A stretch of 49,893 bases of DNA from Candidatus Poribacteria bacterium (GTDB lineage Bacteria > Poribacteria > WGA-4E > WGA-3G), in NCBI GenBank assembly GCA_009839975.1, contig VXOP01000382.1, positions 1,383 through 51,275 of the forward strand. Reading direction: 5' to 3'. The translations under genes were made by a program, and so were the position numbers. The notes beneath the pieces were generated by a model. The model saw nothing but the letters and a program-made list of their open reading frames with translations, did not search any database and had not been told where the DNA came from. Below, piece by piece: positions 8,554 through 32,782 of the stretch (the first letter of the stretch is position 1; the number at the start of each line of letters is the position of its first letter).

Positions 8554-9682
8554 AAGAAGATGTATCCTCAAATTCAGTATCTACTTCTTCTTTTGTCTCG
8601 CCTTCTTCAGTAACACCATCAAATGAATCTGACTGAGCGATTGTACTTAAATTCTCACGAATCTTCTGCTCCAGTTCGGCAGTAATATTGGAATTCTGCT
8701 CTAAGTAGGTTTTGACATTGTTTCGTCCCTGTCCAATTCTCTCATTGTTGTATGAGAACCATGAACCTCTTTTCTGAATATAACCTGCATCAACGGCGAT
8801 GTCCAGCAGGTTGCCTTCTTTTGAGATGCCTTTACCGAATGTTATATCAAACTCAGCTTCTCTGAAAGGGGGAGCGACCTTATTCTTTACGACCTTTACA
8901 AGTACTCTATTTCCGAGCACATCTTGTCCTTCTTTTATCTGTGTTGACCTTCTAATTTCCAACCTAACGGATGCATGAAATTTCAAGGCGAGTCCACCCG
9001 GTGTTGTGTCTGGATTTCCAAACATGATACCTATTTTCTGTCGTATCTGGTTTGTAAAAATTACACATGTCTTGGACTTGTTTGTAACACCAGATAATTT
9101 ACGTAGTGCTTTTGACATCAACCGTGGTAATAATCCGACATGTGCATCACCCATCTCACCTTCAATTTCAGCTTGTGGTGTGAGCGCAGCGACTGAATCA
9201 ATTATAACCACATCAATTGCGCCGCTTCGGATAAGCGTTTCAACGATCTCCAATGCTTGTTCACCTGCATCGGGTTGAGAAATCAATAAGTTCTCAAGAT
9301 TCACGCCTATATTTCGTGCATAAGTAGTGTCCAGGGCGTGTTCTACATCAATAAATGCAGCGATTCCACCCCTTTTCTGTGCTTCAGCAACGATGTGTAA
9401 TGCTAACGTTGTCTTCCCTGTTCCTTCATGTCCAAAGACTTCAACGATTCTACCGCGTGGAACACCCCCAACACCTAATGCCAAATCAAGTGCAAGTGCG
9501 CCAGTAGGTATAACCTCCACTGGAACAACTTCGTCACCTGTTAGACGCATGATGGCACCTTTTCCATAGGCACGTTCAACTTGAGAAATAGCTTGGTCTA
9601 CAGCTTTTCTCTTCTCTGCTGCATTTTTCTGTTCTTCAGCACTTAATTCATTTTCCACATTCGTTCTATCATCTTTCGCCAT
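8552..9682 (-). CDS. recA: Recombinase RecA (full-length copy)
   Basis: The 376-aa DNA strand-exchange ATPase also serves as co-protease for LexA-type repressors. Visible motifs: the N-terminal oligomerisation helix ([20 protein letters not shown]), Walker A GHEGTGKT (84-91), [12 protein letters not shown] (Walker B), loop L1 region [10 protein letters not shown], loop L2 region [10 protein letters not shown] with GNPDTTPGG, and [14 protein letters not shown]. The Walker A departs from the usual GPESSGKT. The C-terminal tail is acidic, as in other RecA proteins. The ATG has a GGAGT ribosome binding site. It is the last gene of the lolA-pgsA-thpR-recA group; a tandem duplication placed a second, broken 5' part at 10904-11278. 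Confidence 0.95.
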
Positions 9683-9688
9683 ATTACT

Positions 9689-10264
9689 TTACTCCTTACC
9701 CAAATGAAATCTACTCATCGGCGTATATACTGCTCCAGTTGGGCGCAATTCGCTTTTGACAAGTGTAATCTCATCTACTGCCATAGATGTATTCTGTATC
9801 GTCTGATATTCCTCAAACAGATCAACGTTTCCTCTCAAGTCTTTCTGTTGTCTCAGTCTTGCCAATGTTACATGTGGATGAAATCGTTCATCACTCTTAA
9901 CATCACAGTGCAACAGGGCGTTGTTAATGTATTTACTTAAATCTGTCGTTATGTTTCCCCCTTGCTTTAATCCTATCCATAATACGCGTGGACGTGACAA
10001 ATTCGGAAATGTGCCAATTCCACCAAATTCCAGATAAAAAGGTTTCTGTTTTATTGCGACTTTGTCTATAGCATTACAGACATCAGAAATACTATTTTTC
10101 TTTACGTCCCCAAGGAACTTCAATGTCAAATGGAAGTTTCCGGTTTTTGTCCAAGATGCTTTTCCAATTTCTGTTCTCAATTCATTCTGAATCTTCTCAA
10201 AAACCCTTTGAACGCGGACTGGAATCTCAATAGCAACAAAGCACCTGATGTAAACAGTTTTCAT
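9689..10264 (-). CDS. thpR: RNA 2',3'-cyclic phosphodiesterase ThpR (copy next to intact recA)
   Basis: The 191-aa product belongs to the 2H phosphoesterase superfamily, which opens RNA 2',3'-cyclic phosphates. Both signature motifs are present: FHLTLKFLG near residue 43 and HPHVTLARL near residue 128, supplying the two catalytic His-x-Thr pairs. FVAIEIPVRVQ at the N-terminus is typical. Length is normal (about 180-190). It is identical to 11285-11860 because of the tandem duplication. It sits 6 bp upstream of recA, an arrangement also known in other phyla. Confidence 0.9.
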   Translation of the reverse strand: MKTVYIRCFVAIEIPVRVQRVFEKIQNELRTEIGKASWTKTGNFHLTLKFLGDVKKNSISDVCNAIDKVAIKQKPFYLEFGGIGTFPNLSRPRVLWIGLKQGGNITTDLSKYINNALLHCDVKSDERFHPHVTLARLRQQKDLRGNVDLFEEYQTIQNTSMAVDEITLVKSELRPTGAVYTPMSRFHLGKE

Positions 10265-10287
10265 TCCATTTATCCAACAAAACTAAC

Positions 10288-10881
10288 CTATGTTTTAGCA
10301 GAAAATACTTTACGGTTTCCGTATAAAAATTCAATTCCAGATGCGACAGTTAAAACAACCGGTAGAAGCATCATAAAAAAAATCGGACCATACTGTTGTA
10401 TAACAAACTCTGTGTCTATAAAGAATATTAGTAGAACTAAACTGATAGTAATAATAGTCAGTTGTGTTGCCGTCTTATATTTCCCCCATTTGTTTGCAGA
10501 TATAACATCTCCATTCTTAGCAACGACAAAAATACGGACTGTCGTTACGACGAACTCACGTCCGAGTATAACCACTACCATCCATATAGGAATAAGTCTG
10601 ACATTATTTACTAAAAGTTCATGTTGAAATAGACAGAAACTAATCAGTGCTGTTGCTACTAATACCTTATCAACAATAGAGTCCATGAAACTACCGAATT
10701 CTGTTATACCCTCTTTTCGTGCGATTTTTCCATCTAATAGGTCAGTTATAGCTGCTAGGCCGAAACAGACTGCTGAAGGAAGCATCATTTTCGCACGAAA
10801 GAAGAAGAAAAAAGGGACAGTTAGCAATAAACGCGTAAAAGTCAGAAGATTAGCCAAACGAAAATATTGATGAGAACTCAT
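10288..10881 (-). CDS. pgsA: CDP-alcohol phosphatidyltransferase, PgsA type (left copy)
   Basis: The 197-aa inner-membrane enzyme most likely makes phosphatidylglycerol-phosphate from CDP-diacylglycerol and glycerol-3-phosphate. The family motif DG(x2)AR(x8)G(x3)D(x3)D is complete in DGKIARKEGITEFGSFMDSI-VD (about residues 49-71). The start NLLTFTRLLLTVPFFFF and several hydrophobic helices fit PgsA. In this copy the region 5' of the ATG is the duplicated tail of lolA and then truncated recA, not intact lolA. It is identical to 11884-12477. Confidence 0.88.
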   Translation of the reverse strand: MSSHQYFRLANLLTFTRLLLTVPFFFFFRAKMMLPSAVCFGLAAITDLLDGKIARKEGITEFGSFMDSIVDKVLVATALISFCLFQHELLVNNVRLIPIWMVVVILGREFVVTTVRIFVVAKNGDVISANKWGKYKTATQLTIITISLVLLIFFIDTEFVIQQYGPIFFMMLLPVVLTVASGIEFLYGNRKVFSAKT

Positions 10882-10903
10882 AAATGCCTATTTTTCCGAA
10901 AAA

Positions 10904-11278
10904 TCAATCACCTCTGCATCCTGTGTCCAGGGCGTGTTCTACATCAATAAATGCAGCGATTCCACCCCTTTTCTGTGCTTCAGCAACGATGTGTAATGCT
11001 AACGTTGTCTTCCCTGTTCCTTCATGTCCAAAGACTTCAACGATTCTACCGCGTGGAACACCCCCAACACCTAATGCCAAATCAAGTGCAAGTGCGCCAG
11101 TAGGTATAACCTCCACTGGAACAACTTCGTCACCTGTTAGACGCATGATGGCACCTTTTCCATAGGCACGTTCAACTTGAGAAATAGCTTGGTCTACAGC
11201 TTTTCTCTTCTCTGCTGCATTTTTCTGTTCTTCAGCACTTAATTCATTTTCCACATTCGTTCTATCATCTTTCGCCAT
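10904..11278 (-). pseudogene. recA: Truncated recA (first 119 codons) created by tandem duplication
   Basis: The first 119 codons are identical to the intact recA. After HALDT the frame crosses the duplication junction at 10922/10923, reads GCRGD out of frame through the lolA tail, and stops at 10904. The fragment keeps the N-terminal helix and Walker A but lacks Walker B, both DNA-binding loops and the C-terminal domain, so it cannot be an active recombinase. If translated, it would be a 124-aa RecA N-terminal fragment with its own normal start and ribosome binding site. It could poison RecA filaments; that is speculation. Confidence 0.9.
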
Positions 11279-11284
11279 ATTACT

Positions 11285-11860
11285 TTACTCCTTACCCAAA
11301 TGAAATCTACTCATCGGCGTATATACTGCTCCAGTTGGGCGCAATTCGCTTTTGACAAGTGTAATCTCATCTACTGCCATAGATGTATTCTGTATCGTCT
11401 GATATTCCTCAAACAGATCAACGTTTCCTCTCAAGTCTTTCTGTTGTCTCAGTCTTGCCAATGTTACATGTGGATGAAATCGTTCATCACTCTTAACATC
11501 ACAGTGCAACAGGGCGTTGTTAATGTATTTACTTAAATCTGTCGTTATGTTTCCCCCTTGCTTTAATCCTATCCATAATACGCGTGGACGTGACAAATTC
11601 GGAAATGTGCCAATTCCACCAAATTCCAGATAAAAAGGTTTCTGTTTTATTGCGACTTTGTCTATAGCATTACAGACATCAGAAATACTATTTTTCTTTA
11701 CGTCCCCAAGGAACTTCAATGTCAAATGGAAGTTTCCGGTTTTTGTCCAAGATGCTTTTCCAATTTCTGTTCTCAATTCATTCTGAATCTTCTCAAAAAC
11801 CCTTTGAACGCGGACTGGAATCTCAATAGCAACAAAGCACCTGATGTAAACAGTTTTCAT
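11285..11860 (-). CDS. thpR: RNA 2',3'-cyclic phosphodiesterase ThpR (right copy)
   Basis: The product is the same 191-aa protein as at 9689-10264, with both HxTx motifs intact. It lies between the pgsA copy that follows lolA and the truncated recA, so it keeps the ancestral upstream context (lolA-pgsA-thpR) but has lost a functional recA downstream. Both copies look fully functional from sequence; if the duplication is real, gene dosage is doubled. Confidence 0.88.
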   Translation of the reverse strand: MKTVYIRCFVAIEIPVRVQRVFEKIQNELRTEIGKASWTKTGNFHLTLKFLGDVKKNSISDVCNAIDKVAIKQKPFYLEFGGIGTFPNLSRPRVLWIGLKQGGNITTDLSKYINNALLHCDVKSDERFHPHVTLARLRQQKDLRGNVDLFEEYQTIQNTSMAVDEITLVKSELRPTGAVYTPMSRFHLGKE

Positions 11861-11883
11861 TCCATTTATCCAACAAAACTAAC

Positions 11884-12477
11884 CTATGTTTTAGCAGAAA
11901 ATACTTTACGGTTTCCGTATAAAAATTCAATTCCAGATGCGACAGTTAAAACAACCGGTAGAAGCATCATAAAAAAAATCGGACCATACTGTTGTATAAC
12001 AAACTCTGTGTCTATAAAGAATATTAGTAGAACTAAACTGATAGTAATAATAGTCAGTTGTGTTGCCGTCTTATATTTCCCCCATTTGTTTGCAGATATA
12101 ACATCTCCATTCTTAGCAACGACAAAAATACGGACTGTCGTTACGACGAACTCACGTCCGAGTATAACCACTACCATCCATATAGGAATAAGTCTGACAT
12201 TATTTACTAAAAGTTCATGTTGAAATAGACAGAAACTAATCAGTGCTGTTGCTACTAATACCTTATCAACAATAGAGTCCATGAAACTACCGAATTCTGT
12301 TATACCCTCTTTTCGTGCGATTTTTCCATCTAATAGGTCAGTTATAGCTGCTAGGCCGAAACAGACTGCTGAAGGAAGCATCATTTTCGCACGAAAGAAG
12401 AAGAAAAAAGGGACAGTTAGCAATAAACGCGTAAAAGTCAGAAGATTAGCCAAACGAAAATATTGATGAGAACTCAT
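11884..12477 (-). CDS. pgsA: CDP-alcohol phosphatidyltransferase, PgsA type (right copy)
   Basis: The 197-aa product is identical to that of 10288-10881, with the complete CDP-alcohol phosphotransferase motif. This copy retains the original neighbour: the lolA stop is 6 bp upstream of its ATG, so lolA and pgsA are probably co-transcribed. Both proteins serve envelope biogenesis (lipoprotein transport and phospholipid synthesis), which makes the pairing sensible. Confidence 0.88.
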   Translation of the reverse strand: MSSHQYFRLANLLTFTRLLLTVPFFFFFRAKMMLPSAVCFGLAAITDLLDGKIARKEGITEFGSFMDSIVDKVLVATALISFCLFQHELLVNNVRLIPIWMVVVILGREFVVTTVRIFVVAKNGDVISANKWGKYKTATQLTIITISLVLLIFFIDTEFVIQQYGPIFFMMLLPVVLTVASGIEFLYGNRKVFSAKT

Positions 12478-12483
12478 AAATGC

Positions 12484-13206
12484 CTATTTTTCCGAAAAAT
12501 CAATCACCTCTGCATCCTCTGGTACGTTGAACTTAAATACATCTGAAGACAATTCTTGGTCTCGTTTTATCTTAGAGAGTGATGTGATCACGCTTCGACG
12601 ACTCTTATCCGGGAACTCTATTACATACCCAAACTGGACAGGTAGCCAGTCCTTCTCTTGAACCCAAATCTCAAGTGTCTCTTTTTCTGTGTTTTCATCA
12701 GATGTTTTATTATTTGTTCTATTTAGCAGATGCGGTTTAGGTGTCAGTCTTATCTGAAATACTCCTTTTGCATTTGCAGCCTCATCTGGCACCAACTCCA
12801 TATCCCAATTCTCCGATACATCTTCAAGAGATGCCCCGATACCAGGTAGAATCTCACGACGTTCAGAAGTATCCCATTTTCTTTTATTTACTTGTTTGTA
12901 TAAAGGTACATAAGACCATGCGTAAGAACCATCTAAAACGATAACTTTTACAATCTGTTTGGGATTCTTTGGTGAGACAAATTCCTTTCGCAGCAGATTT
13001 GGCTTGCCGAATGTAAAGTGTCCAGTTGTCACATTTTTGCGTGTCTTATAGAGTGTGGTCTCCTGAAATTCTGCACTGAAGTTTTTTGACTTATTGTAAG
13101 CAGTTTTGAAATTTTCAAAAATCTCGTCCACTGTAAAACTGTGTCCATTGACAACAATTACAACGCTTAGACAAAATAAAATTAGCAAATACCGCAGATG
13201 TTTCAC
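12484..13206 (-). CDS. lolA: Outer-membrane lipoprotein carrier protein LolA
   Basis: The 240-aa product is a periplasmic chaperone that moves lipoproteins from the inner to the outer membrane. It has a Sec signal peptide (YLLILFCLSVVIVVNG), then FSAEFQETTLYKTRKNVTTG with the FGKPNLLRKEFVSPKNPKQI segment characteristic of LolA, and DGSYAWSYVPLYKQV. The start is GTG at 13206 with a good AGGAG ribosome binding site eight bases upstream. Its presence implies a diderm cell with outer-membrane lipoproteins. The last 12 codons or so are duplicated at 10887-10922 as part of the tandem repeat. Confidence 0.87.
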   Translation of the reverse strand: MKHLRYLLILFCLSVVIVVNGHSFTVDEIFENFKTAYNKSKNFSAEFQETTLYKTRKNVTTGHFTFGKPNLLRKEFVSPKNPKQIVKVIVLDGSYAWSYVPLYKQVNKRKWDTSERREILPGIGASLEDVSENWDMELVPDEAANAKGVFQIRLTPKPHLLNRTNNKTSDENTEKETLEIWVQEKDWLPVQFGYVIEFPDKSRRSVITSLSKIKRDQELSSDVFKFNVPEDAEVIDFSEK

Positions 13207-18632: not shown

Positions 18633-19835
18633 CTATAAGGATTCTGCTGCAAAGATTGTCAGGCATAATTCTTCGTTATGGAGTTCATAGAGAGGTGTTT
18701 TTCCACTCAATTCTTCGCTTTCGTTCAGAATGATGCCGACACCTTCACCACGTCCATCTAAAAAGTGTCTTCGCTTCACTTGATTTTCTACAACTTCATC
18801 TAAAGTAATTTCCGACAGTAGACGTGCTAAGAGTTCATTACGGGTTGCTTGACTATAGGGTAGTTTTTCTATTGTTACAGTATTTGCTAATGCACCTGGG
18901 GAATATAGTTCAAGACGATCAGCAAACATGAACAGACGTATTTTTGACTCGCCTTTAGAATAATCTCTGTGAACGACTGCGTTAACAATTGCTTCAAATA
19001 TTGCACGCATACTATATTGGGGTTGGTCTATCCTTCCAACTTCCTTACGTGCTGATACCTTATTGTGTTTTTGAACAAATTGGTATGCATCTATAATTTG
19101 TTGATCAAGTGGTCCTCTAAAATCTTTGGCATCAATCTGGTAATTGGCATCTTTTACTTTACTGCTATAATAGACAGCTTGAATAAAACTGTTGTAGAGA
19201 TAATCATCGGGTGTGTCGTGGCACATCAATACACCGGCAACAGAAGCACGAATCTCCCGACCTTCTTGAACGAGTAAAGTTCTTTTCAGGAGTAGGTCTT
19301 CTATATCTTCTTCAGATACATCTTCTTTGATGAATCGTCGATAGTGCGATTCTCTTAATGTGCCTTTATGGGTGTTTGGAACTAATTGTTCATCAAATCT
19401 GATAATTCTGGCTTGAGAACGTCTTTGCATTAACCGTGCCAACTGGTCGGGCGGCAATTCTATCTTACTACTTCCTCTTCGGGTAAAATATCCATTAGGA
19501 GATCTGTGAACAAAAAGACTTCTCGGCACCTCTGTTTTTAATATGTTTTTATCATCAATCCGCAATTTTTCTGTGAAAAAGTCAACAGCGGGTTTAATGC
19601 TATCTGTGCATATTTCAACAACCATTTTTTCTACTCTATCCAATTCCTGTTGTTCGAGTCCGACGATCTCTTTGTTGTCATCAATACCGATCAGTATTGT
19701 TCCTCCTTGGGCATTTGCAAACGCAGCTATCTCGTCTGCCAAACTGTCTCTGTGTGGCATCACTCTTTTGAACTCAATTGTTGTGTCTTCACCAAGTATA
19801 ATTTTCTCTATAAGTTCAGTTACACTATGAAACAT
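18633..19835 (-). CDS. AlbA_2 (Schlafen-type) domain plus ATPase protein
   Basis: The 400-aa product starts with an AlbA_2/divergent AAA-4 domain (TTIEFKRVMPHRDSLADEIA, FANAQGGTILIGIDDNKEIVG, YFTRRGSSKIELPPDQLARL) and continues into a HATPase-like C-terminal part (MRAIFEAIVNAVVHRDYSKG, LFMFADRLELYSPGAL, ATRNELLARLL). Such proteins were long annotated as RecG-like or transcriptional regulators. Related AlbA_2 domains occur in Schlafen nucleases and in several phage-defence operons. It starts two bases after the trlF stop, with GGAGAT inside the last trlF codons, so the two genes are tightly coupled. It is the last gene of the five-gene island operon. Confidence 0.85.
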   Translation of the reverse strand: MFHSVTELIEKIILGEDTTIEFKRVMPHRDSLADEIAAFANAQGGTILIGIDDNKEIVGLEQQELDRVEKMVVEICTDSIKPAVDFFTEKLRIDDKNILKTEVPRSLFVHRSPNGYFTRRGSSKIELPPDQLARLMQRRSQARIIRFDEQLVPNTHKGTLRESHYRRFIKEDVSEEDIEDLLLKRTLLVQEGREIRASVAGVLMCHDTPDDYLYNSFIQAVYYSSKVKDANYQIDAKDFRGPLDQQIIDAYQFVQKHNKVSARKEVGRIDQPQYSMRAIFEAIVNAVVHRDYSKGESKIRLFMFADRLELYSPGALANTVTIEKLPYSQATRNELLARLLSEITLDEVVENQVKRRHFLDGRGEGVGIILNESEELSGKTPLYELHNEELCLTIFAAESL

Positions 19836-23266: not shown

Positions 23267-23743
23267 TTATTCTATATCTTCTAAGTTGGTTAGATCTTCT
23301 ACGTCAGCAAGATCGGCAAGAGCTCGTGAGTATTTGCGTAATTCCACCTGAAGCAACTTAAGTTCTTCACGAAAAGCGTTGCATTCTGCCTCTTTCTCAA
23401 AATCACCGGCAATACTTTTTGGATGCCACTTGGCAGTAAATGGACGAACCACTTGGTTAAGAACTACGACTGCAATTTTCGTAAACTCAATGCAGTTTTG
23501 TCCTTGTTCTTTAAGGATTCTTCTCGTAGTTTTAAACAGCGAATAAATACTATCTAACGCTGTTTTCTCATCACCAGATTCGGTGGGCAATGCCTGTGTG
23601 GTAATTCTTGTAAGTAACTCAATATACAGTTTCCAAGCAGCTTCTCTGTCCCCTGGTTTGGGAGACCACTCTGCCTGTAAAATGCTTGCATTAATTTTCA
23701 GACTATCCAATCCCCATTGTTTCAACCAATTTTTTAAATTCAT
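23267..23743 (-). CDS. Small protein coupled to ThsB-like TIR gene, 158 aa
   Basis: I cannot name the family. The product is soluble, mainly helical and ends in an acidic tail (DLADVEDLTNLEDIE). Segments that look conserved are GDREAAWKLYIELLTRITTQ, GDEKTALDSIYSLFKTTRRI and CIEFTKIAVVVLNQVVRPFT followed by AKWHPKS. No catalytic motif or membrane segment is visible. The ATG overlaps the stop of the TIR gene (ATGA) and has AAAGGTGG upstream, so the two are translationally coupled. That coupling suggests a partner or sensor subunit for the TIR protein. Confidence 0.75.
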   Translation of the reverse strand: MNLKNWLKQWGLDSLKINASILQAEWSPKPGDREAAWKLYIELLTRITTQALPTESGDEKTALDSIYSLFKTTRRILKEQGQNCIEFTKIAVVVLNQVVRPFTAKWHPKSIAGDFEKEAECNAFREELKLLQVELRKYSRALADLADVEDLTNLEDIE

Positions 23744-24300
23744 TTAGACCACCTTTCGCCCGAACGGTTATTTTTAAACGAATCACGAGAATTGACGGGC
23801 AGTATCTCTGTGCTTCGCCTTCGTTGAAAAGCGTCATGTATCCAAGACTGAACGGTACGTGGATTTTCGCTCCAATTGTAAATTTTAGCATATCCACACT
23901 CAATATTATCGTGGAGTCTTGGAGGTATTGTGTGTATGTAATAGTTGTTAGGATAATCGGGTGGTCGCGGATATGTCGGCAATAAAATCCCTAAGAGACC
24001 AGAACGAGAACTGGCTTTTGTCTGCCGTATACTGGAGCCAATTTCCCAATCGACATATTTTCGTTGCCACGTATGGGCACCGATGAGAACAACTGTCACT
24101 GTGGAATCTTGCAGATAGTTCTCCCTTATGATTTGAAAAACCCGATCTGTTGAGAGTCTGGTATCATCAATGTCTCCTATTTCAACGGATTCTGAAACCA
24201 TGATATCATGGATGTCTGAAAACATGCGTTCAAACCAGTCCCGATAATATTGGTCTTCATCATGGTAATAGCTAACAAAAACTCGATGTCTGTTGTTCAT
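23740..24300 (-). CDS. ThsB-like TIR (DUF1863) protein
   Basis: The 186-aa product is a TIR-like protein of the DUF1863/Thoeris ThsB type. It starts HRVFVSYYHDEDQYYRDWFE, continues with TRLSTDRVFQIIRENYLQDS and VTVVLIGAHTWQRKYVDWEI, then GLLGILLPTYP. Glu86 in DWEI is the probable catalytic glutamate. In Thoeris, ThsB senses infection and makes a cyclic ADP-ribose signal for the effector ThsA. No ThsA-like SIR2 or SLOG protein is seen here. I chose the ATG at 24300 because AGGAGG lies six bases upstream; the longer frame from 24333 has no such site. It is the first gene of the five-gene unit. Confidence 0.82.
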   Translation of the reverse strand: MNNRHRVFVSYYHDEDQYYRDWFERMFSDIHDIMVSESVEIGDIDDTRLSTDRVFQIIRENYLQDSTVTVVLIGAHTWQRKYVDWEIGSSIRQTKASSRSGLLGILLPTYPRPPDYPNNYYIHTIPPRLHDNIECGYAKIYNWSENPRTVQSWIHDAFQRRRSTEILPVNSRDSFKNNRSGERWSK

Positions 24301-24352
24301 TAGACGCCTCCTTTGTTGTTTATGTTTAAACACTTTAGTCTCTTAATATACA

Positions 24353-24560
24353 TTATCCATCCGCTATTTCAGCAGGCATATTGTCAATAATCCGCGCCGA
24401 TCCCACACTCATATAAACAATACGTTTAATTGCTGCAACCAAACCACGAGGGCAACAAACCAACCGTTCGGATCGTTGACAATACCGTTGTCCTTGTCTG
24501 TTTTTTATAGTCCCAAACAATTAACTATCCCAGAGCGGTGGACATCTTCTGGGACAATCG
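24353..24560 (-). pseudogene. Decayed 3' end of a type ISP-like restriction enzyme gene, tail A
   Basis: The minus strand encodes TDKDNGIVNDPNGWF, then after a frame change AAIKRIVYMSVGSARIIDNM and PAEIADG before a TAA at 24353-24355. This matches the end of the intact enzyme at 27956 (TDKDSGIVNDPNGWF … AIKRIVYVSVESARIIDGLP). Homology seems to continue to about 24560 with more decay. It is a scar of a former restriction gene, lying between the TIR operon and the 316-aa gene. Confidence 0.8.
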
Positions 24561-24575
24561 AATTTAAATGTGTCA

Positions 24576-25511
24576 TCATATCTCGTAGCGATAGGTCATT
24601 TGTTTTTTCAGATGCCAAAAGAGTGCCCTCACACCGTCAACAGTGGTTTCAGCTTCCATGAGTTCGGGTAGGCTGTTTACTGTGAACTCAGGGTCATCCA
24701 TTGGTGTCGTGATATAGTGCATAACTTGTATGGGTGTCCAATATATGAAATCGCAGTAAATCTTATGTTCTATTTCATCAGAAAACCAACCACTTTGTCG
24801 CATTTCTACCAATTCAGCAAAATTACTCTGTATACCGAATTGCATCAGTGAGATGACGTGTAATTGTTGATTGCCATTGCGCGTTTGATCATATTGTGTT
24901 TGGTATTCGTAAACTTGATCAAGGAGTTCTTTGGCTTTTTGGTTCCAAGGGTGTTTATTGAGTAATAAACTAACAGGTTTACAAGTATACCAAAGACCTT
25001 CTAACGTTTGTTTTATATTGACGTGGTCGGGGGGTTGATTTTGAAAAAGTGATAATTGGTGGCTGTCGCTATCGTTCTGGATCGATATTAACAATTCTTG
25101 CCAGTGTTCACAATGTCTTGCAATGTTCTCCAATACTTTATCTTTGACTGATTCTTTCATTTCATGCACATCATAGTAATTTCCCCAGTCGCTACAGAAA
25201 TCATTGAAATCCATTAATGCAAAATGTAATATTTCAGATATCTCGTATCGTTTTTTCATCCATTCTAAGTGTGAAGACGGTTTGGGTAGATGTGTGAGTA
25301 TATGATATAGCATCACAAGGTTGCCTGTCTTTATTCCGTAATATCTCTCTTCTTTCTCTTCATTTTCAAGTTCGGTAAATGCTTCTTTTATTGTTTTGTT
25401 ACGCGATAATTTGTATGGATATAGCGTGAGAAGCGCATTTAGACGTTCTATCGGTTCGCGCAGTGCATCAAGTTCATTCTTAAGTTCTTTTTTCCATTCT
25501 TCTGGTGTCAT
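24576..25511 (-). CDS. Hypothetical island protein with QLSLF motif, 311-316 aa
   Basis: I do not recognise a family. The product is soluble and mostly helical, with many tryptophans and tyrosines. MTPEEWKKELKNELDALREP opens the chain. A polar linker near the middle holds SHQLSLFQNQPP; QLSLF (152-156) matches the consensus of sliding-clamp-binding peptides. I prefer the ATG at 25511, which has AAGGAAG five bases upstream; an in-frame ATG at 25526 is possible. The gene is bracketed by two decayed ends of restriction genes (24353-24560 and 25544-25645), so it was probably part of a restriction or defence cassette. No operon partner overlaps it. Confidence 0.7.
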   Translation of the reverse strand: MTPEEWKKELKNELDALREPIERLNALLTLYPYKLSRNKTIKEAFTELENEEKEERYYGIKTGNLVMLYHILTHLPKPSSHLEWMKKRYEISEILHFALMDFNDFCSDWGNYYDVHEMKESVKDKVLENIARHCEHWQELLISIQNDSDSHQLSLFQNQPPDHVNIKQTLEGLWYTCKPVSLLLNKHPWNQKAKELLDQVYEYQTQYDQTRNGNQQLHVISLMQFGIQSNFAELVEMRQSGWFSDEIEHKIYCDFIYWTPIQVMHYITTPMDDPEFTVNSLPELMEAETTVDGVRALFWHLKKQMTYRYEI

Positions 25512-25543
25512 ATCAACTTCCTTCATTATCTCTGTACCTATTC

Positions 25544-25645
25544 TTAGGTTCCAGTTGCCATTATCTCAGCAGAAAGGTTGTCTATTATACACGTAGATTC
25601 CACACTCACATAAACAATACGCTTAATAGCCGCAGTTATACACAA
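25544..25645 (-). pseudogene. Decayed 3' end of a type ISP-like restriction enzyme gene, tail B
   Basis: In one frame the minus strand reads TAAIKRIVYVSVESTCIIDN, then LSAEIMATGT and a TAA at 25544-25546. The intact enzyme ends TAIKRIVYVSVESARIIDGL, then PAEITSD. Homology stops abruptly near 25645, beyond which the sequence is unrelated. The scar lies between the DUF2779 gene and the 316-aa gene. Confidence 0.8.
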
Positions 25646-25715
25646 GAACTGTGTAAGATTGATTTTCAGCTATCCATATACATTCTGGTTTATCGCTATA
25701 AGTAATACTCTTTGA

Positions 25716-27200
25716 TTACAATCCACACAAAACTTTATGAATTTCAAGCATTGCTAGTGTATCCAGCTTGCAATATTCTTTTAGGTGTTCAATCATATCG
25801 CTTTGTTTACTTTCACTTGTTGTATTAATCATTAGATCCCAGAGAGCTTGTGCTTCCAGACCATCGTGTACAACATCCAGATTTTTGAATGACAACGAAG
25901 GCACTAAAACAGGGAGCACATCCTTGAGAGAATTGGAACCGCAAAAATCAGGATGCATATAATGGTTTTTAAATATGTCTAACTGATCCCAAAGCCTATT
26001 AATGATTGATTCAAGTTCAGAAGAGTATTCAGGAAAAGAGACAGTAAGTTCATTAAGTCTCAACCGTTCAAAAGTGGCATTAAAAACTACTACAGAACCA
26101 GAAGGTGAAATATGGTTAAACAAAGATTCTAACAGAGGTCTCCTTGGATCGGATGTATCGGTATGTAGATATTCGTAATGTGTAGCAGATCCATCCGATT
26201 TCAATACGTGGCAACTATACTGAAACGGAAAGTGTTGGCAAGGACGTACCTCCTCAAACCTTGGGATCGGCGGATTATCCGTTTCGAAATCAAAGAAGTG
26301 AACTGGATACTCTAAATCGGATAAAAGACGTTGCACTGCCGGAATATCAATTACTGGTTGTTCATCTATAACGCTATTGACGTAAGTCCGTTGTTTTTCA
26401 CTCAGGGCAAAATCGTCTGGGACATCCTCAAGACTAAAGATACCTCTTTCTATCAACTCGCCCTTTTTATTCCAACGAAGTCCTGGAATAGTAAAAATGG
26501 ATTTTTGGGGAACATCCATCCAACAATACGTCTCCTTAAAAGGACAAGTATAAGGCTTTTTACACTGATCTCCAATCAAAACCTGTGGTTCATCGTTGCC
26601 ATTGATTATGGTTTTGAATGTTTCGACATTGCTAGGAACATCGCCCATCAACTGATTGACCTGTTCCGTTGCATCCTCAATAATAAACAAATTACCCAAA
26701 TCTGGATAAACACACTCTTTACTATCTATGAGCATCAATTTTGTTTTGGAGATAGATAACCCGTGTCCAGCTAAGACGTACTTTTGGATAGCTAAGTCAT
26801 GTAAGTATTCTACCTTTACTATTCTTGAGTCCTTAACTGTTTGATTGACTGTTGATGCTTTTACTTCAATAATGTTCCACGAGTTTGAATCTTTTTGGAT
26901 AATATCACATCTGACCAGAACATCATTGAAAATGAAAGAAGCTTCGAAAATACAGGAATCGCCACGTTCTATTGCTTCTGCTGTTTGTTCTACAGAAACC
27001 AACGGGTCTATAGCATCAATCAGTACTCCATTAGTAAAGTGGTCACGAGCTAAAATCCCCACTTCTTTACTCTGATCAAATTTTCGTTTTTGCGATATAG
27101 AAGTATCTGCAGCCCTATTTGGGTGTTTCACTTCATTCCATAGGCGTTTATGACATTGTAGACCACTCAAGTACTTTGATTTCGTAAGATAATTTGCCAT
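25716..27200 (-). CDS. DUF2779 protein: Cas4-like Fe-S nuclease plus DEDD exonuclease
   Basis: The 494-aa product has two apparent nuclease modules. The N-terminal one resembles Cas4/AddB: LSGLQCHKRLW (Cys16), VRCDI (Asp99), IIEVKAS (Glu112, Lys114) and three more cysteines at 213, 219 and 226 (CKKPYTCPFKETYC), which with Cys16 could hold a 4Fe-4S cluster. The C-terminal DUF2779 part looks like a DnaQ-type exonuclease: HFFDFETD (Asp304, Glu306), VVFNATFERLRL, WDQLDIF (Asp408) and EYCKLDTLAM (Asp480). The role of DUF2779 proteins is not established to my knowledge; the two modules suggest DNA or RNA end processing. The ATG has GAAGGAG. A miniature element lies 27 bp upstream, so its promoter may be element-derived. 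Confidence 0.82.
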   Translation of the reverse strand: MANYLTKSKYLSGLQCHKRLWNEVKHPNRAADTSISQKRKFDQSKEVGILARDHFTNGVLIDAIDPLVSVEQTAEAIERGDSCIFEASFIFNDVLVRCDIIQKDSNSWNIIEVKASTVNQTVKDSRIVKVEYLHDLAIQKYVLAGHGLSISKTKLMLIDSKECVYPDLGNLFIIEDATEQVNQLMGDVPSNVETFKTIINGNDEPQVLIGDQCKKPYTCPFKETYCWMDVPQKSIFTIPGLRWNKKGELIERGIFSLEDVPDDFALSEKQRTYVNSVIDEQPVIDIPAVQRLLSDLEYPVHFFDFETDNPPIPRFEEVRPCQHFPFQYSCHVLKSDGSATHYEYLHTDTSDPRRPLLESLFNHISPSGSVVVFNATFERLRLNELTVSFPEYSSELESIINRLWDQLDIFKNHYMHPDFCGSNSLKDVLPVLVPSLSFKNLDVVHDGLEAQALWDLMINTTSESKQSDMIEHLKEYCKLDTLAMLEIHKVLCGL

Positions 27201-27227
27201 TGTTATTCTCCTTCATTATTTTGCACA

Positions 27228-27433
27228 ATAAGTCGTTTTGGAATTGAGAAATTTGACATTTACTGTCAAAAGGGCATCGCTTCCTTATCTGGTAAGCATT
27301 TAGAACAATGAACATAGCGTCCTTAAAAAAATAAAGAATATCCTTGTTGTGAGAATCAGATTAGGCAATACCACTTATGTTTACTGGGTTAATACCGCTA
27401 TTTAGATATTTTCTCAAGTCCAAAACGACTTAT
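27228..27433. mobile_element. Putative MITE, 206 bp with 24-bp terminal inverted repeats
   Basis: The left end begins ATAAGTCGTTTTGGAATTG, and the right end, read on the other strand, ATAAGTCGTTTTGGACTTG. The arms 27228-27251 and 27410-27433 match at 23 of 24 positions. The interior (158 bp) is non-coding and holds a perfect hairpin TTGACA-tttac-TGTCAA just inside the left arm. TA lies at both tips, compatible with TA-targeting transposition. No transposase is present. Confidence 0.6.
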
Positions 27434-27480
27434 ACCGTTAAAGTTTAATACGTTATGATGTATTTTTGCAAATCTTTAAT

Positions 27481-27540
27481 GAAGTTTACATTACCAAAGA
27501 ATTCATCAAAAACAGGATGTTTTATGATCTGCTGTGCCTA
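27481..27540 (-). pseudogene. Internal fragment of a type ISP-like restriction gene
   Basis: The minus strand reads AQQIIKHPVFDEFFGNVNF, which parallels AQHIITRPVFEALFDNYDF of the intact enzyme (around residue 765). The DNA also aligns with about 30460-30420. Flanks on both sides are not homologous, and a stop follows, so this is debris of a divergent homologue. Confidence 0.6.
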
Positions 27541-27679
27541 CGTACTAATTGTGTTTTGGCGCGTTAAAGCATCGTGAAGTATACCTCTCAACGTTGTGTG
27601 GAAAGAAATAAATGTGAAGTGCAACGTTATCAGGATGCAGTAGCAAGTTTGTGATGTTGTTAACAATTCTGTTGTAGAC

Positions 27680-27920
27680 TCATTCCATGATGTTTGAAGT
27701 TATCCACCTCATATAATCTCTTTCTGTAGAAACTTCCCGCCAATTATCTTCGATTGTGTATCCATCAGTTAGAATGATTGGGTTGAAACGCCGATCTACA
27801 ATCCCTATTGTAATTTATTATTTTATTGATTATCTCAATGCTGTCCCGTGAAGGACTCACAAGGAACACAATCCGCATCGGACGTATGTCTATGTAAATG
27901 GAATATGGATTAGTAAACAT
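27680..27920 (-). pseudogene. Frameshifted remnant of an unidentified gene
   Basis: From an ATG at 27920, one frame reads SIYIDIRPMRIVFLVSPSRD and SIEIINKIINYN. A second frame then gives GIVDRRFNPIILTDGYTIED and NWREVSTERDYMRWITSN, ending at a TGA at 27680. The join lies around 27800. The text looks like real protein interrupted by an indel. I cannot name the family. It probably belongs to an earlier content of the island. Confidence 0.45.
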
Positions 27921-27955
27921 AATGTTAGTTGAGTTTCTCCAACAGATGTACCGTT

Positions 27956-30900
27956 TTAATCTGAAGTTATCTCAGCAGGCAGACCATCAATAATCCGAGC
28001 AGATTCCACACTCACATAAACAATACGCTTTATTGCCGTAACCAAATCACGCGGATCAGCAAACCAACCGTTTGGGTCATTAACAATGCCACTATCTTTG
28101 TCTGTTTTGATATAATACCTGTCAATGAACCACTCCAGCGGTGTTCTACCATTGACAACATATCCCGATGAGTCTTTCGGAATATTTGTTATGCGGACAT
28201 TATCATTGATGGCAAAGATTCTTTTCTGATCATCAATAAACTTCATTGATCTTTCAGTTAGCAGGAAAAGGTTCGGGTCAGCATGTTCAATATCAGTTGG
28301 TGGTGATTTCATATTGGGATACTCAACGCTAAGTGGGTGTTGTTCACACGTCTCATAGTTGAGGTGGAGTTCTGCTAATTTATATCCTGCTTCAGCGAAA
28401 GCAGTGAAGTCTGGTGCATAAGGGATACGCGGGAGCATCTTTGATAAGTCGTTTGCAAACTGTTCTCGGTAACTGGGGGCATGGAGAATGCCGTAGACAT
28501 AATAAAAGATGTCGTCTTTGGTGATTGTATCATCACTGTAATGTTCTTGGAATGCCTTTAGTGCTGTGTCTGAGATGTTGTCAATACGATCAGGTGAGTC
28601 GTCAACATCAAGAAGGGTTTCTGATGCGTCTTGCTTATCCGATGATTTTGGATATTGCCACCGTGGGAAGCATTGAGCTCCTGCTTCATTGAAATTGAGA
28701 TCTGGCATTGTATCAGTCATTAGAACAGAATATTGATTTTTCCAACTTTTGCCGGGAACACAAATCACACGGTTTTCGTCAGAAATGTCAAAGAAAATTT
28801 GTCCCATGTTTTCTTGTGCAAAGGCATAATCAGCATAGCAATTAATACCAATAAATGGACGATACATGACCTTTCGGATGTAGTCTTCTTTGAATTCAAC
28901 CAATTTCTTGCGTTCCAGTTTCTTCTTGAGATCTGCACCCCACTTAATATGTGAGTTGTGCAGTAGAGTTACTTCATCCACAGTAAGTTCAGGATTTTCA
29001 TCAAGTTCAGCAATTGCATTGAGGTAGTCTTGTGTCATCCGTTTCGCGTTTTCAGCACAAACATCGTATGAGAAATTGTAGATGTAAACATCCCTACCTG
29101 TTCCGTATCCTCGCGAATACAACCCAAAAATGGCATCATCTTTCTTTCTTGATTTTGCATCCTTCGTACCAAGTGGATAAAACTGACTAAATGCTTCACT
29201 GCGTTGCCCGATCCAATCGTAATGTGTATCAGGTGTAATGGTGTTCCAATCACTGAATCCTGTGATTGACTCTGCCTCATGTAGTGCCTCTAATTTTTCC
29301 TCGCGTGTAAGATAGTCGCCGATGTCACGGTATTGAATTTTACAACCCTTGTATGTCGCGTTTGGATTTTTGACAAGGATTGAAATAGCAACGGGTGCTC
29401 GCGAACCACTACCAAATATTTTGCCTCCTTCTTGACGTGATCGATCTCCTTGGGTGCGCTGATTTCCTCGGAGATGAAGAACGTGGATTGAACTAAACTC
29501 CTCTGCTAAACATGCACGGACTCCTGAATCGGTGTTTCCATCAATCCATGAACCGCTGGTAACAAAGGCAATGATACCCTTTTCACCAATTCTGTCGGAT
29601 GCCCATCGAATCGCCATCTTATAGGTATCGTATAGACTATTCTTATTGTTACCTTGTGAGTACTCAGCATAAGTTCCCTTTATACGTTCTTCAAGTTCAG
29701 GGTAAGGTACGTTTTGATTGTTGTCTGCGGCACTCCTCTGTCCCATTGACCAAGGTGGATTACCAACAATGACTTGGATTGGCAGTTTCTGTTGACGTTC
29801 GGCGCGTTTGTTATTATCTGGCAGCCATTCTTTTGGGAAAAGGGTTGTAACGTCTTTTTTGTTAAGATTGAAGGTGTCGGTTAGGACGATGCCGTTGAAA
29901 GGTTCGTAAGTGCTGTCTTCTCCGCGTCTACCACGGAATGTCTCTTCTATGTTGACGGTGGCGATGTAGTATGCCAACAGGACGATCTCGTTTGCATGGA
30001 GTTCTTCTCGGTATTTGCGTTCAAGGTCGGCATCTTGGATAATATTGGACTGCAGCAGACGTGTGAGAAATATACCGGTACCGGTGAATGGATCCAACAC
30101 ATGCACACCTTCATCGCTAAGACTGCGTCCGAATTCGTCTTGCAATACCTCGTTGGCACTATGGAGTATGAAATCAACTACCTCAATTGGTGTGTAGACA
30201 ATACCGAGACGTTCTACCTCCTTTTTCAAGGCAGTCACGAAAAACTTCTCGTAGAGTTCCAATAGGACGCGTTGACGTGCTTCGCTATTGTCAAGTCCCT
30301 GTGCACGCATTCGGACGCTTTCATAAAACCCTTCCAGATCACGCGTTTCGTTTTCCAGTCCGAATTCGCTAAAATCGTTTTGGAGTTTGTTTAGTGCGTT
30401 TGCTACTGGGTTTCCGGATGCGAAATCGTAGTTATCAAAGAGTGCTTCAAAGACAGGGCGTGTAATAATGTGTTGTGCCATCATATCAATAGCACTCTCA
30501 CGGGTGATTGAGTCGTTGATTGTTCCCATTAACTCGTTGTGGAAATCGTCAAACCACTCTTGTAGTGCGCTGTTTTCAGGATTTTCCAGTAGGTTTTCTA
30601 TCCGTCCGACGAGTCTTTTGAATATATCTGCGACATCTTTTGCCCAACTTTCCCAGTATTTTCTATCACCGCATTTCTCCACTATTTTAGCGTAGATGGC
30701 ATCGGCTGGAATACCGAAAGGCAGCAGTAACTGATCAGGATCTACTGTTCCTTCTCCATATTCACCATCGCCATTTTCATCTTCAAAGATAATAATTTCA
30801 GTCGGTTCGTTGTTAAGGTCAATTTTATTGATTTCGGCATTAAGCCTGTCATCGTGGGAACGGAGTGCGCGGAGGACACCCCACACGGTAGCGAATCTTT

Positions 30901-32782
30901 CGTTATCGTTGAGTGCGTCAACAGGGTCAACACCTGGCGGAATTGCAACAGGCAAAACGATATAACCGTATTCCTTATCGGGTGCCTTACGCATCACGCG
31001 ACCAACTGCCTGCACAATGTCAACGTGTGAGTTGCGCGGTGACATGAACAGCACAGCATCAAGTGCGGGGACATCAATACCTTCGGAGAGGCAGCGTGCA
31101 TTGGATAGGATACGACAAACATCATCTGTATCGCCTTTTAGCCATTCAATTAGTCTTTTTCTATCAAGAGCATTCTTTGTTCCATCAACATGTGCAGTTT
31201 CGCATTTGAAATTGGCTGGACGACTTTCTTCTGGTGTCTCTTCTATAGCACTCTCAATAATGCCATTCCAATGTTTCTCAAGGTTTTGTGATGACCTAAT
31301 GGTGTTTGTGAATGCGATGGCGCGTGTGAGCGGTTTGATTGTGTCGTCATCTGGTGATTTTCTTTCGGGATTCTGCAATGCACGCCAACAGCCGACAATT
31401 TTTGCTGCATCGCTGATGTTTACTTCACTGCCACCATTGCTGAGATAGTTGTGTAGCGTACCCTGCACACGTTGTTCTGACATTGCGAGCACAACGACTT
31501 TGTAATCGGAGAGGAGTTCTTGTGTTACTGCTTTTGAAAATGGGAGTCTGTGAAATTCAGGTCCATAAGTGTTCGGATCGTCCATAGAGAACACGTCAAT
31601 ATCGTGTTTTGCTGCTTTTGTTTTCGCGCCTTGCGTATAGAGGCGAGGTGTTGCTGTCATATAGAGTCGTTTTTTGGCGCGTATACGTTCGGTATCGTGG
31701 ACGAGAACGAAAGGTGAGGTTTTGTCGTCAGGTTTGTCAATACCGGTAGTTCTGTGTCCTTCATCGCACAGAATTAAATCAAACTCAGGTGCTCCTGCCT
31801 CTTGTGCTTCTGCGACTTTCGGAAGTGATTGATAGGTGCAGAATACGACACGCATGCTGTCTTCATCGTCAGTACTGTTAGATCGCTGTAGTGCTTCGGA
31901 GATAACAATTTCATCGGTGGTAACAGGGAATTCCAATTCCATGAGTGTAACGTCTTCATTCGCTTTTCCTGCCTTTGTATCGGAGCATATACCGATGTAG
32001 CGATGTGGAATTGCTTGTTGTTCTGCCCATTCACGCATTGCTTGTGCAAAGAGTCCGATGGATGGGACAAGATATAACACCCGACCCCCGATACCCGCGA
32101 TGTCCTCTGCGATTCGGAGTGCGGTGAAGGTTTTGCCTGTGCCGCATGCCATGATGAGTTTACCACGGTCAGAATCTTTGAATCCGTTGATAACATCATC
32201 AAATGCCTCTTTTTGATGATCCCGTAGGCTGAACGTTTCCAGTTGATAGTTAAGTTGGTCTGGTTCTTGGGAGCTGAGGTTGGGCCACTGGACAGGTCGG
32301 CTTGCGAGGTCTGCAGCACTAATCCGTTGGCATGGGGGTTCTAATCCATCAATGGCTTTTTTTAGGTTGGTAGTCCAACTTTTACCGGTATCTACAAATA
32401 TTCGTGCGGTGAAAGGTTGCCGATTGGATTCTGAGATGAACGTATCAATATCGGATTTTGAGATCCGTTTGTCTTCTGCATAGCATTTGCACTGGATAGC
32501 ACAAATACCGTTATTACGTTCTATTGCGACGAGGTCTATACCGCGATCTACACGGTCAAATCCGGGTTGGTTTTCTGCCCATTCTCCCCATAGATATACT
32601 TCTGAGAATCGTTTTCTATAGAAAGGGTCTTCAAGTAGATATGCTCTTATCAATCGTTCAAAGAGTCTGCCTTTACCGAATTGTGTGTTTACGTTTTGTC
32701 GGATGTAGTTGAGTGCATCGTAGAATCCATTATCTGACTCTTCGTTTGTAATAAATAAAGGGATCTGTATTGCATCCGCCAT
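27956..32782 (-). CDS. Single-chain restriction-modification enzyme, type ISP-like
   Basis: The 1,608-aa product joins nuclease, translocase, methyltransferase and target recognition in one chain, as in type ISP enzymes such as LlaGI/LlaBIII. An Mrr-like PD-(D/E)XK domain is near the N-terminus (GIDLVAIE Asp83, IQCKCY Gln97/Lys99). An SF2 helicase follows: motif I MACGTGKTF (211-219), DEGHR, MTATPRLY and QAVGRVMR. The adenine N6-methyltransferase has DPFTGTGIF (about 897) and VGNPPWSMG (about 1003-1011). The last 450 residues should be the target recognition domain. All motifs look intact, so the enzyme should both modify and cut. It is the only intact restriction gene in the island; decayed relatives lie downstream. 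Confidence 0.88.
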   Translation of the reverse strand: MADAIQIPLFITNEESDNGFYDALNYIRQNVNTQFGKGRLFERLIRAYLLEDPFYRKRFSEVYLWGEWAENQPGFDRVDRGIDLVAIERNNGICAIQCKCYAEDKRISKSDIDTFISESNRQPFTARIFVDTGKSWTTNLKKAIDGLEPPCQRISAADLASRPVQWPNLSSQEPDQLNYQLETFSLRDHQKEAFDDVINGFKDSDRGKLIMACGTGKTFTALRIAEDIAGIGGRVLYLVPSIGLFAQAMREWAEQQAIPHRYIGICSDTKAGKANEDVTLMELEFPVTTDEIVISEALQRSNSTDDEDSMRVVFCTYQSLPKVAEAQEAGAPEFDLILCDEGHRTTGIDKPDDKTSPFVLVHDTERIRAKKRLYMTATPRLYTQGAKTKAAKHDIDVFSMDDPNTYGPEFHRLPFSKAVTQELLSDYKVVVLAMSEQRVQGTLHNYLSNGGSEVNISDAAKIVGCWRALQNPERKSPDDDTIKPLTRAIAFTNTIRSSQNLEKHWNGIIESAIEETPEESRPANFKCETAHVDGTKNALDRKRLIEWLKGDTDDVCRILSNARCLSEGIDVPALDAVLFMSPRNSHVDIVQAVGRVMRKAPDKEYGYIVLPVAIPPGVDPVDALNDNERFATVWGVLRALRSHDDRLNAEINKIDLNNEPTEIIIFEDENGDGEYGEGTVDPDQLLLPFGIPADAIYAKIVEKCGDRKYWESWAKDVADIFKRLVGRIENLLENPENSALQEWFDDFHNELMGTINDSITRESAIDMMAQHIITRPVFEALFDNYDFASGNPVANALNKLQNDFSEFGLENETRDLEGFYESVRMRAQGLDNSEARQRVLLELYEKFFVTALKKEVERLGIVYTPIEVVDFILHSANEVLQDEFGRSLSDEGVHVLDPFTGTGIFLTRLLQSNIIQDADLERKYREELHANEIVLLAYYIATVNIEETFRGRRGEDSTYEPFNGIVLTDTFNLNKKDVTTLFPKEWLPDNNKRAERQQKLPIQVIVGNPPWSMGQRSAADNNQNVPYPELEERIKGTYAEYSQGNNKNSLYDTYKMAIRWASDRIGEKGIIAFVTSGSWIDGNTDSGVRACLAEEFSSIHVLHLRGNQRTQGDRSRQEGGKIFGSGSRAPVAISILVKNPNATYKGCKIQYRDIGDYLTREEKLEALHEAESITGFSDWNTITPDTHYDWIGQRSEAFSQFYPLGTKDAKSRKKDDAIFGLYSRGYGTGRDVYIYNFSYDVCAENAKRMTQDYLNAIAELDENPELTVDEVTLLHNSHIKWGADLKKKLERKKLVEFKEDYIRKVMYRPFIGINCYADYAFAQENMGQIFFDISDENRVICVPGKSWKNQYSVLMTDTMPDLNFNEAGAQCFPRWQYPKSSDKQDASETLLDVDDSPDRIDNISDTALKAFQEHYSDDTITKDDIFYYVYGILHAPSYREQFANDLSKMLPRIPYAPDFTAFAEAGYKLAELHLNYETCEQHPLSVEYPNMKSPPTDIEHADPNLFLLTERSMKFIDDQKRIFAINDNVRITNIPKDSSGYVVNGRTPLEWFIDRYYIKTDKDSGIVNDPNGWFADPRDLVTAIKRIVYVSVESARIIDGLPAEITSD

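What the first reader, a model, noticed from the sequence alone, without database searches (positions are those of the whole stretch)
24353..27958. Three 3' ends of type ISP-like restriction genes in a row
The last codons of the intact enzyme (stop at 27956) recur as decayed copies ending at 25544 and 24353, all on the same strand, each retaining a stop codon. They sit downstream of the DUF2779 gene and of the 316-aa gene. The sequences differ from each other, so they are not recent copies of the local gene but the ends of distinct homologues. The conserved 3' end may be a recombination site at which successive defence cassettes replaced one another.
Basis: seen in the sequence. Interest (0 to 1): 0.7.

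Follow-up and report, generated by a model that had tools for sequence, protein, structure and literature searches.

The report
Restriction-gene tails marking defence-module swaps
In sponge-symbiont bacteria (Poribacteria) the last 65-230 bases of one large restriction-enzyme gene survive many times over as scars between unrelated defence genes, which shows that this gene end is a recurrent joint where defence modules have been swapped, and keeps a readable record of earlier defences.

Summary
Downstream of the intact type ISP gene (stop at 27956) lie two same-strand remnants of ISP 3' ends: 25544-25648 (81% DNA identity to the local gene) and 24353-~24560 (78%). They score 74 and 152 against a shuffled maximum of 34. 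Both are closer to ISP alleles of other genomes (88% and 87%) than to the local gene. A further ISP fragment (coupler domain) and a truncated partner gene lie between the intact gene and DUF2779.

The arrangement is not local. I count 22 orphan ISP tails in 14 of 18 genomes of the genus, against 1 orphan N-terminus and no orphan methyltransferase-motif piece. The tails are switch points. Tail 3 joins a 316-aa-gene+tail unit (as in G013) to a tail+TIR module (as in G074 and G003). Elsewhere the same module follows an intact ISP in one genome and an orphan tail in another. One tail+protease block is 94-98% identical across genera whose purL is only about 74-78% identical.

No evidence supports a dedicated site: junction points vary, synonymous sites are not conserved, and the genome holds one tyrosine recombinase. 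Best reading: scars of sequential module displacement by homology-assisted recombination at the ISP 3' end, a new variant of a known kind.

The parts
27956..32782 (-). Intact type ISP restriction-modification gene, 1608 aa: Mrr nuclease, helicase, ISP coupler, N6-methyltransferase, ISP C-terminal specificity domain
   Evidence: Pfam PF13156, PF04851, PF22240, PF02384/PF07669, PF18135 and PADLOC REase_MTase_IIG
27740..27921 (-). 5' fragment (61 codons, 94% aa identity) of a 914-aa partner gene (F60) that follows an ISP in G003 (L054) and an orphan tail in G011 (L127)
27360..27680 (-). Decayed ISP coupler-domain fragment (aa ~720-787, weaker extension to ~845), possibly the start of a second, half-length ISP gene
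   Evidence: tblastn 43-44% aa identity, E 2e-9; own-genome hit E 1.1e-4
25716..27200 (-). DUF2779 gene, 494 aa, lying between the coupler fragment and tail 2
   Evidence: PF11074 E 8.5e-42
25544..25648 (-). Tail 2: orphan ISP 3' end (aa ~1580-1605 plus stop), 88% DNA identity to the G005 ISP, 81% to the local one
24576..25526 (-). 316-aa gene, function unknown; its one close homologue (G013, 66% aa) also ends in an orphan ISP tail
24353..24560 (-). Tail 3: orphan ISP 3' end (aa ~1559-1608, one frameshift), 87% DNA identity to the G003 ISP, 78% to the local one
23740..24333 (-). ThsB-like TIR gene starting just after tail 3; in G074 and G003 the close homologue follows an intact ISP or another orphan tail
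   Evidence: PF08937 E 1.9e-19
23267..23743 (-). 158-aa gene of the TIR module (F27)
   Evidence: same order in L055 and L126
22526..23152 (-). Second TIR-like gene of the module (F28)
   Evidence: PF13676 E 1.5e-4, below its gathering score; conserved order in L055, L126
19838..22474 (-). PHP/SMC-like gene matching PADLOC Ppl; in three related genomes (L146, L134, L177) the Ppl module follows an orphan tail
18633..19835 (-). Schlafen AlbA_2 gene; in G003 and G008 its homologue ends in an orphan ISP tail, here no tail was detected after it

Best explanation
The three ISP ends are a layered scar array. The type ISP gene and the defence module behind it occur as linked pairs in different Poribacteria (ISP-TIR, ISP-protease, ISP-F60 and others; shown by comparison). 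When new DNA enters such a locus, one end is joined by homology in or near the ISP 3' end or a shared flank, and the other end is joined with little homology. The older ISP loses its body while its last 65-230 bp stay attached to the older downstream module (inferred). Repetition gives ISP-new module-old tail-old module. In the window, from newest to oldest: intact ISP with a truncated F60 partner; remains of a second ISP with DUF2779; tail 2 with the 316-aa gene; tail 3 with the TIR module. Once present, the tails act as patches of shared homology through which modules can be exchanged further, including between genera (shown as mosaic breakpoints; the enzymology is inferred to be ordinary homologous recombination with illegitimate ends).
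For: (1) 22 orphan tails in 14 of 18 genomes of the genus, against 1 orphan N-terminus and no orphan methyltransferase-motif piece. (2) All ten tails at ISP-bearing loci are downstream and on the same strand. (3) Switch points in the tail: w_t3 shares its left side with G013 (74% over 1.15 kb, 316-aa gene + tail) and its right side with G074 and G003 (85-90%, TIR); G026_t and G005_ISP are 94% identical from 138 bp before the stop through the protease module, with unrelated left sides; G001, G017 and G009 share left and differ right; the purL(1-57)|tail fusion occurs with several right modules. (4) The G026-G005 block is 94-98% identical across genera whose purL is 73-78% identical. (5) All three close TIR homologues follow an ISP 3' end and both close 316-aa genes precede a tail; remoter homologues do not. 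(6) Tails derive from several alleles, with third-position excess of mismatches (0.26 vs 0.10-0.11), so most divergence arose while coding. (7) Possible intermediate: G012 has ISP N-terminus, WD40 gene, ISP 3' end. (8) Single-contig genomes G010 and G080 also show tails, so assembly error is unlikely.
Against: Loci were chosen through ISP or tail hits, so finding breakpoints at tails is partly built in; only the 3'-versus-N-terminal count is free of this. I found no pair of close strains that differ by exactly one insertion. Some tails are followed by an opposite-strand gene (G006, G013) or stand without an ISP (G009, G014), which deletion alone could also give. Why so little of the 3' end is kept is not explained by recombination alone.
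Confidence: 0.6

Rival explanations
1. Erosion down to a needed regulatory region: tandem ISP-module pairs accumulated, older ISP bodies were deleted piecemeal, and only the 3' end was kept because it carries the promoter or leader of the gene just downstream.
For: Several downstream genes start only about 20-60 bp after the tail (window tail 2 and 3, L047, L138, L141), so their promoters would fall in the tail; tandem full plus half ISP exists in L134. Retained lengths have a lower limit of about 65 bp.
Against: Promoter-like matches are not in excess in the region (14 found, 15.9 expected); no block inside the tails is specially conserved; some tails are followed by an opposite-strand gene or a gap of more than 300 bp. 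It does not by itself produce the exchanged left and right partners.
Confidence: 0.2
2. Ordinary pseudogene decay: ISP genes are common, get lost often, and the tails are chance leftovers.
For: Frameshifts and stops in many tails; broken ISP copies exist (L055, L129, L130, L131).
Against: Chance leftovers should include N-terminal and middle pieces; the counts are 22 tails to 1 N-terminus to 0 methyltransferase-motif pieces in the same genomes. Independent junctions cluster in the last ~5% of a 4.8-kb gene.
Confidence: 0.12
3. Site-specific integration into the ISP 3' end by a recombinase, each element bringing a replacement 3' end, or an integron-like cassette system with the tail as recombination site.
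For: Tandem direct repeats of a gene's 3' end flanking single genes have this shape; right-hand homology starts within 0-30 bp of the stop.
Against: Left boundaries differ between independent junctions; no synonymous-site constraint in intact genes (0.44 vs 0.445); only one PF00589 protein in the genome; none of the cassette genes examined is an integrase. Serine recombinases were not searched.
Confidence: 0.07

Closest known systems
[quoted passage not shown]
   Same: Successive modules inserted at one end of a locus; older downstream genes kept, in one step with the 3' end of the displaced gene; mosaic exchange by homologous recombination; homology-facilitated illegitimate recombination proposed.
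   Different: There an effector-immunity pair explains retention; here the retained genes are independent defence genes behind a restriction enzyme, and only the enzyme's last 65-230 bp recur.
Insertion with long target duplication, linked to restriction-modification genes in Helicobacter pylori (Nobusato 2000, described in PMC1643837)
   Same: Insertions linked to restriction-modification genes and flanked by long direct repeats; here ISP tails, and also the PEP-hydrolase 3' end and purL 5' end.
   Different: There a strain pair shows the duplication directly; here the copies are different alleles, so simple duplication of the local target is not shown.
Rhs C-terminal displacement (PMC2935791)
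   Same: Displaced 3' gene ends downstream of an intact copy (abstract level; detail partly from memory).
   Different: In Rhs the conserved core is 5' and variable tips are displaced; here the conserved part that remains is the 3' end itself.
Integron cassette arrays
   Same: Single genes separated by a recurring short sequence, order from new to old (from memory).
   Different: No integron integrase found, no precise crossover, and the recurring sequence is a decayed coding end.

Membership tests
Type ISP restriction-modification enzymes (intact gene) | Single polypeptide with Mrr-type nuclease, helicase, coupler, N6-methyltransferase and ISP specificity domain | tested here: met
   Pfam hits over gathering scores in the expected order
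Sequential displacement array (T6SS-like) | Displaced 3' ends on the same strand downstream of the current intact gene | tested here: met
   10 of 10 tails at ISP-bearing loci
Sequential displacement array (T6SS-like) | Displaced parts come from different alleles found intact elsewhere | tested here: met
   Best matches are ISPs of other genomes
Sequential displacement array (T6SS-like) | Constant 5' flank serving as homologous anchor at the locus | tested here: inconclusive
   Only about 100-170 bp upstream of the ISP start is shared in some pairs; flanks beyond differ
Insertion with long target duplication | Insert flanked by direct repeats of the target end | tested here: met
   ISP tails on both sides of the 316-aa gene and of the DUF2779 stretch; F6 and purL ends likewise
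Insertion with long target duplication | Close relative with the uninterrupted target and a single copy | tested here: inconclusive
   G074 has ISP directly followed by TIR, but it is another genus and the window tails are not copies of the local ISP
Integron / attC cassette array | Integron integrase and precise crossover site | tested here: not met
   One PF00589 match in the genome, on another contig and not typed further; variable boundaries
Site-specific island in a gene 3' end | Identical crossover point and element-borne integrase | tested here: not met
   Variable boundaries; no integrase among the module genes examined; serine recombinases not searched

The most novel reading that the evidence does not exclude
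The ISP 3' end is an active, specialised exchange site for defence genes in Poribacteria: gene+tail units are excised and joined by a host or trans-acting recombinase, making an integron-like defence array built from a restriction-gene end.
Probability: 0.07. Interest if true: 0.85.

Novelty: new variant of a known kind. Interest (0 to 1): 0.5.

Why it matters
How defence islands gain and lose systems is usually seen only as presence or absence. Here each exchange left an alignable scar, so the order and source of past defences can be read from one locus, and the role of restriction-modification genes as recombination foci can be tested in an uncultured phylum. It also warns that short ORFs annotated as ISP-like or fusion proteins in these genomes are scars.

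Tried and rejected
Synonymous-site constraint in the tail as sign of a DNA site: none. A conserved block inside orphan tails: none beyond a modest dip. Promoters in the tails: no excess. Tail in viral contigs (exact degenerate pattern): none. Integrase-driven cassettes: not supported. A 24-bp inverted repeat at 27228-27251/27410-27433 looked like an element end; related strings occur in other loci but no element could be defined.

Full report
What is there. On the minus strand the window holds an intact 1608-aa type ISP gene (27956-32782) with all expected domains. Downstream, in the same direction, come a truncated 5' end of a 914-aa gene (27740-27921), a decayed ISP coupler-domain fragment (~27360-27680), DUF2779 (25716-27200), ISP tail 2 (25544-25648), a 316-aa gene (24576-25526), ISP tail 3 (24353-~24560), and then a TIR gene, two small genes, a Ppl-like gene and a Schlafen AlbA_2 gene. 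The two tails align to the ISP gene far better than shuffled sequence (74 and 152 against at most 34) or random window stretches (at most 38). Both are nearer to ISP genes of other genomes than to the local one.

Organism. An exact-pattern scan of named genomes hit only Candidatus Poribacteria MAGs, nine in all. The window's own genome and its relatives are unnamed handles G000-G082; matching contig lengths tie several of them to those records (for example G005:C132 and JAPPES010000036.1, 86829 bases).

It is widespread and biased to the 3' end. With a 41-aa tail query over 18 genomes of the genus, followed by closer inspection, I count 22 orphan tails in 14 genomes. One of them, G003_ta, is borderline at score 43. 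The same genomes hold one true orphan N-terminus (G016:C25) plus two in-situ broken ISPs, and no orphan piece of the methyltransferase motif of this subfamily. The control queries were longer (67 aa), so the bias is not a matter of sensitivity. All ten tails at loci with an ISP lie downstream on the same strand, 1.5-7.8 kb away. Two of the genomes with tails, G010 and G080, are single contigs, which speaks against assembly error.

The tails are switch points. Aligning 3 kb on each side of the tails shows homology that stops or starts inside them. Window tail 3 shares 1.15 kb to its left (316-aa gene plus tail, 74%) with G013, and its right side (TIR module, 85-90%) with an intact ISP in G074 and another orphan tail in G003. 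G026 (orphan tail) and G005 (intact ISP) are 94% identical from 138 bp before the stop through a trypsin-like protease module, with unrelated left sides. The left unit of G001, G017 and G009 is the same while the right sides differ. A fusion of purL codons 1-57 to ISP residue 1577 recurs in three genomes before different right sides. The G026-G005 block is 94-98% identical although purL of the two genera is about 74-78% identical, so it moved horizontally. The three closest TIR homologues all follow an ISP 3' end and the two close 316-aa genes both precede a tail; remoter homologues have none.

What the tail is not. Fourfold-degenerate sites in the last 30 codons of intact ISPs are average (0.44 against 0.445 overall; 0.80 against 0.62 +/- 0.13 in the three closest, within range). 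Mismatches in orphan tails fall mostly on third positions (0.26 against 0.10-0.11), as expected if divergence arose in coding ancestors. Retained length varies from about 65 to 230 bp among independent junctions. The genome has one PF00589 protein. I therefore see no evidence for a dedicated recombination site.

Mechanism. The best-supported reading is repeated displacement: ISP-module pairs enter a locus, the older ISP loses its body, and its 3' end stays with the older module. Mosaic breakpoints and horizontal transfer are shown; the order of events, the joining chemistry and the cause of retention are inferred. G012, where a WD40 gene sits between an ISP N-terminus and an ISP 3' end, and the window's coupler fragment-DUF2779-tail 2, look like intermediates. 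Other gene ends at a PEP-hydrolase-purL hotspot are duplicated around inserts too (F6 3' end, purL 5' end), so the process is not confined to ISP. A rival is that the tails are kept because they carry the next gene's promoter; promoter scans give no support but cannot exclude it.

Relation to known work. Kirchberger and colleagues describe the same layout for T6SS effector-immunity arrays and propose homology-facilitated illegitimate recombination (PMC5361080). Insertion with long target duplication was described for restriction-modification genes in H. pylori (Nobusato 2000, summarised in PMC1643837). Rhs genes show displaced C-terminal ends (PMC2935791). The present case adds a restriction gene's 3' end as recurrent joint between defence modules across a bacterial family; I found no earlier report in the searches made, which cover only part of the literature.

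Limits. Genomes are mostly fragmented MAGs of different species, so no strain-level before-and-after pair was available. Loci were picked by ISP or tail hits, so breakpoints at tails are partly expected by selection; the 3' bias is the unbiased part. The genome-wide control for other large genes was not done.

Noticed in passing
window 9327-12521: Tandem duplication of 1599 bp at 99.94% identity (period 1596), covering two genes; recent or an assembly effect.
   Followed up: partly
window 27228-27251 and 27410-27433: 24-bp inverted repeat, 96% complementary, around the leftover before DUF2779; similar strings (CAAGTCCAAAACGACTTAT) occur in other Poribacterial loci.
   Followed up: partly
L138, L139, L140, L146, L147, L149, L057, L126, L141, L142: Conserved hotspot between a PEP-hydrolase/sulfatase cluster and purL-purQ that holds different defence genes in each genome.
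   Followed up: partly
L138:9298-9444, L057:5152-5262: The 3' end of the PEP-hydrolase gene is duplicated behind an inserted WD40/LRR gene.
   Followed up: partly
L047:9209-9379, L058:6616-6860, L149:9669-9839 and 11174-11344: First 57 codons of purL duplicated and fused to the ISP tail in three genomes.
   Followed up: partly
L057:5412-8099, L134:7803-10427: Half-length ISP genes (coupler, methyltransferase, specificity; 874-895 aa) next to tails or a full ISP.
   Followed up: no
L055:8098-9561: 487-aa caspase-like plus FGE-sulfatase gene between an internally deleted ISP and a decayed tail.
   Followed up: no
L143:10433-10918: A 161-aa gene lies between two orphan tails in G032, next to short repeated CCCCGCTGGGGCTT strings; from its first residues it resembles an IS200-like transposase (from memory, not searched).
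   Followed up: no
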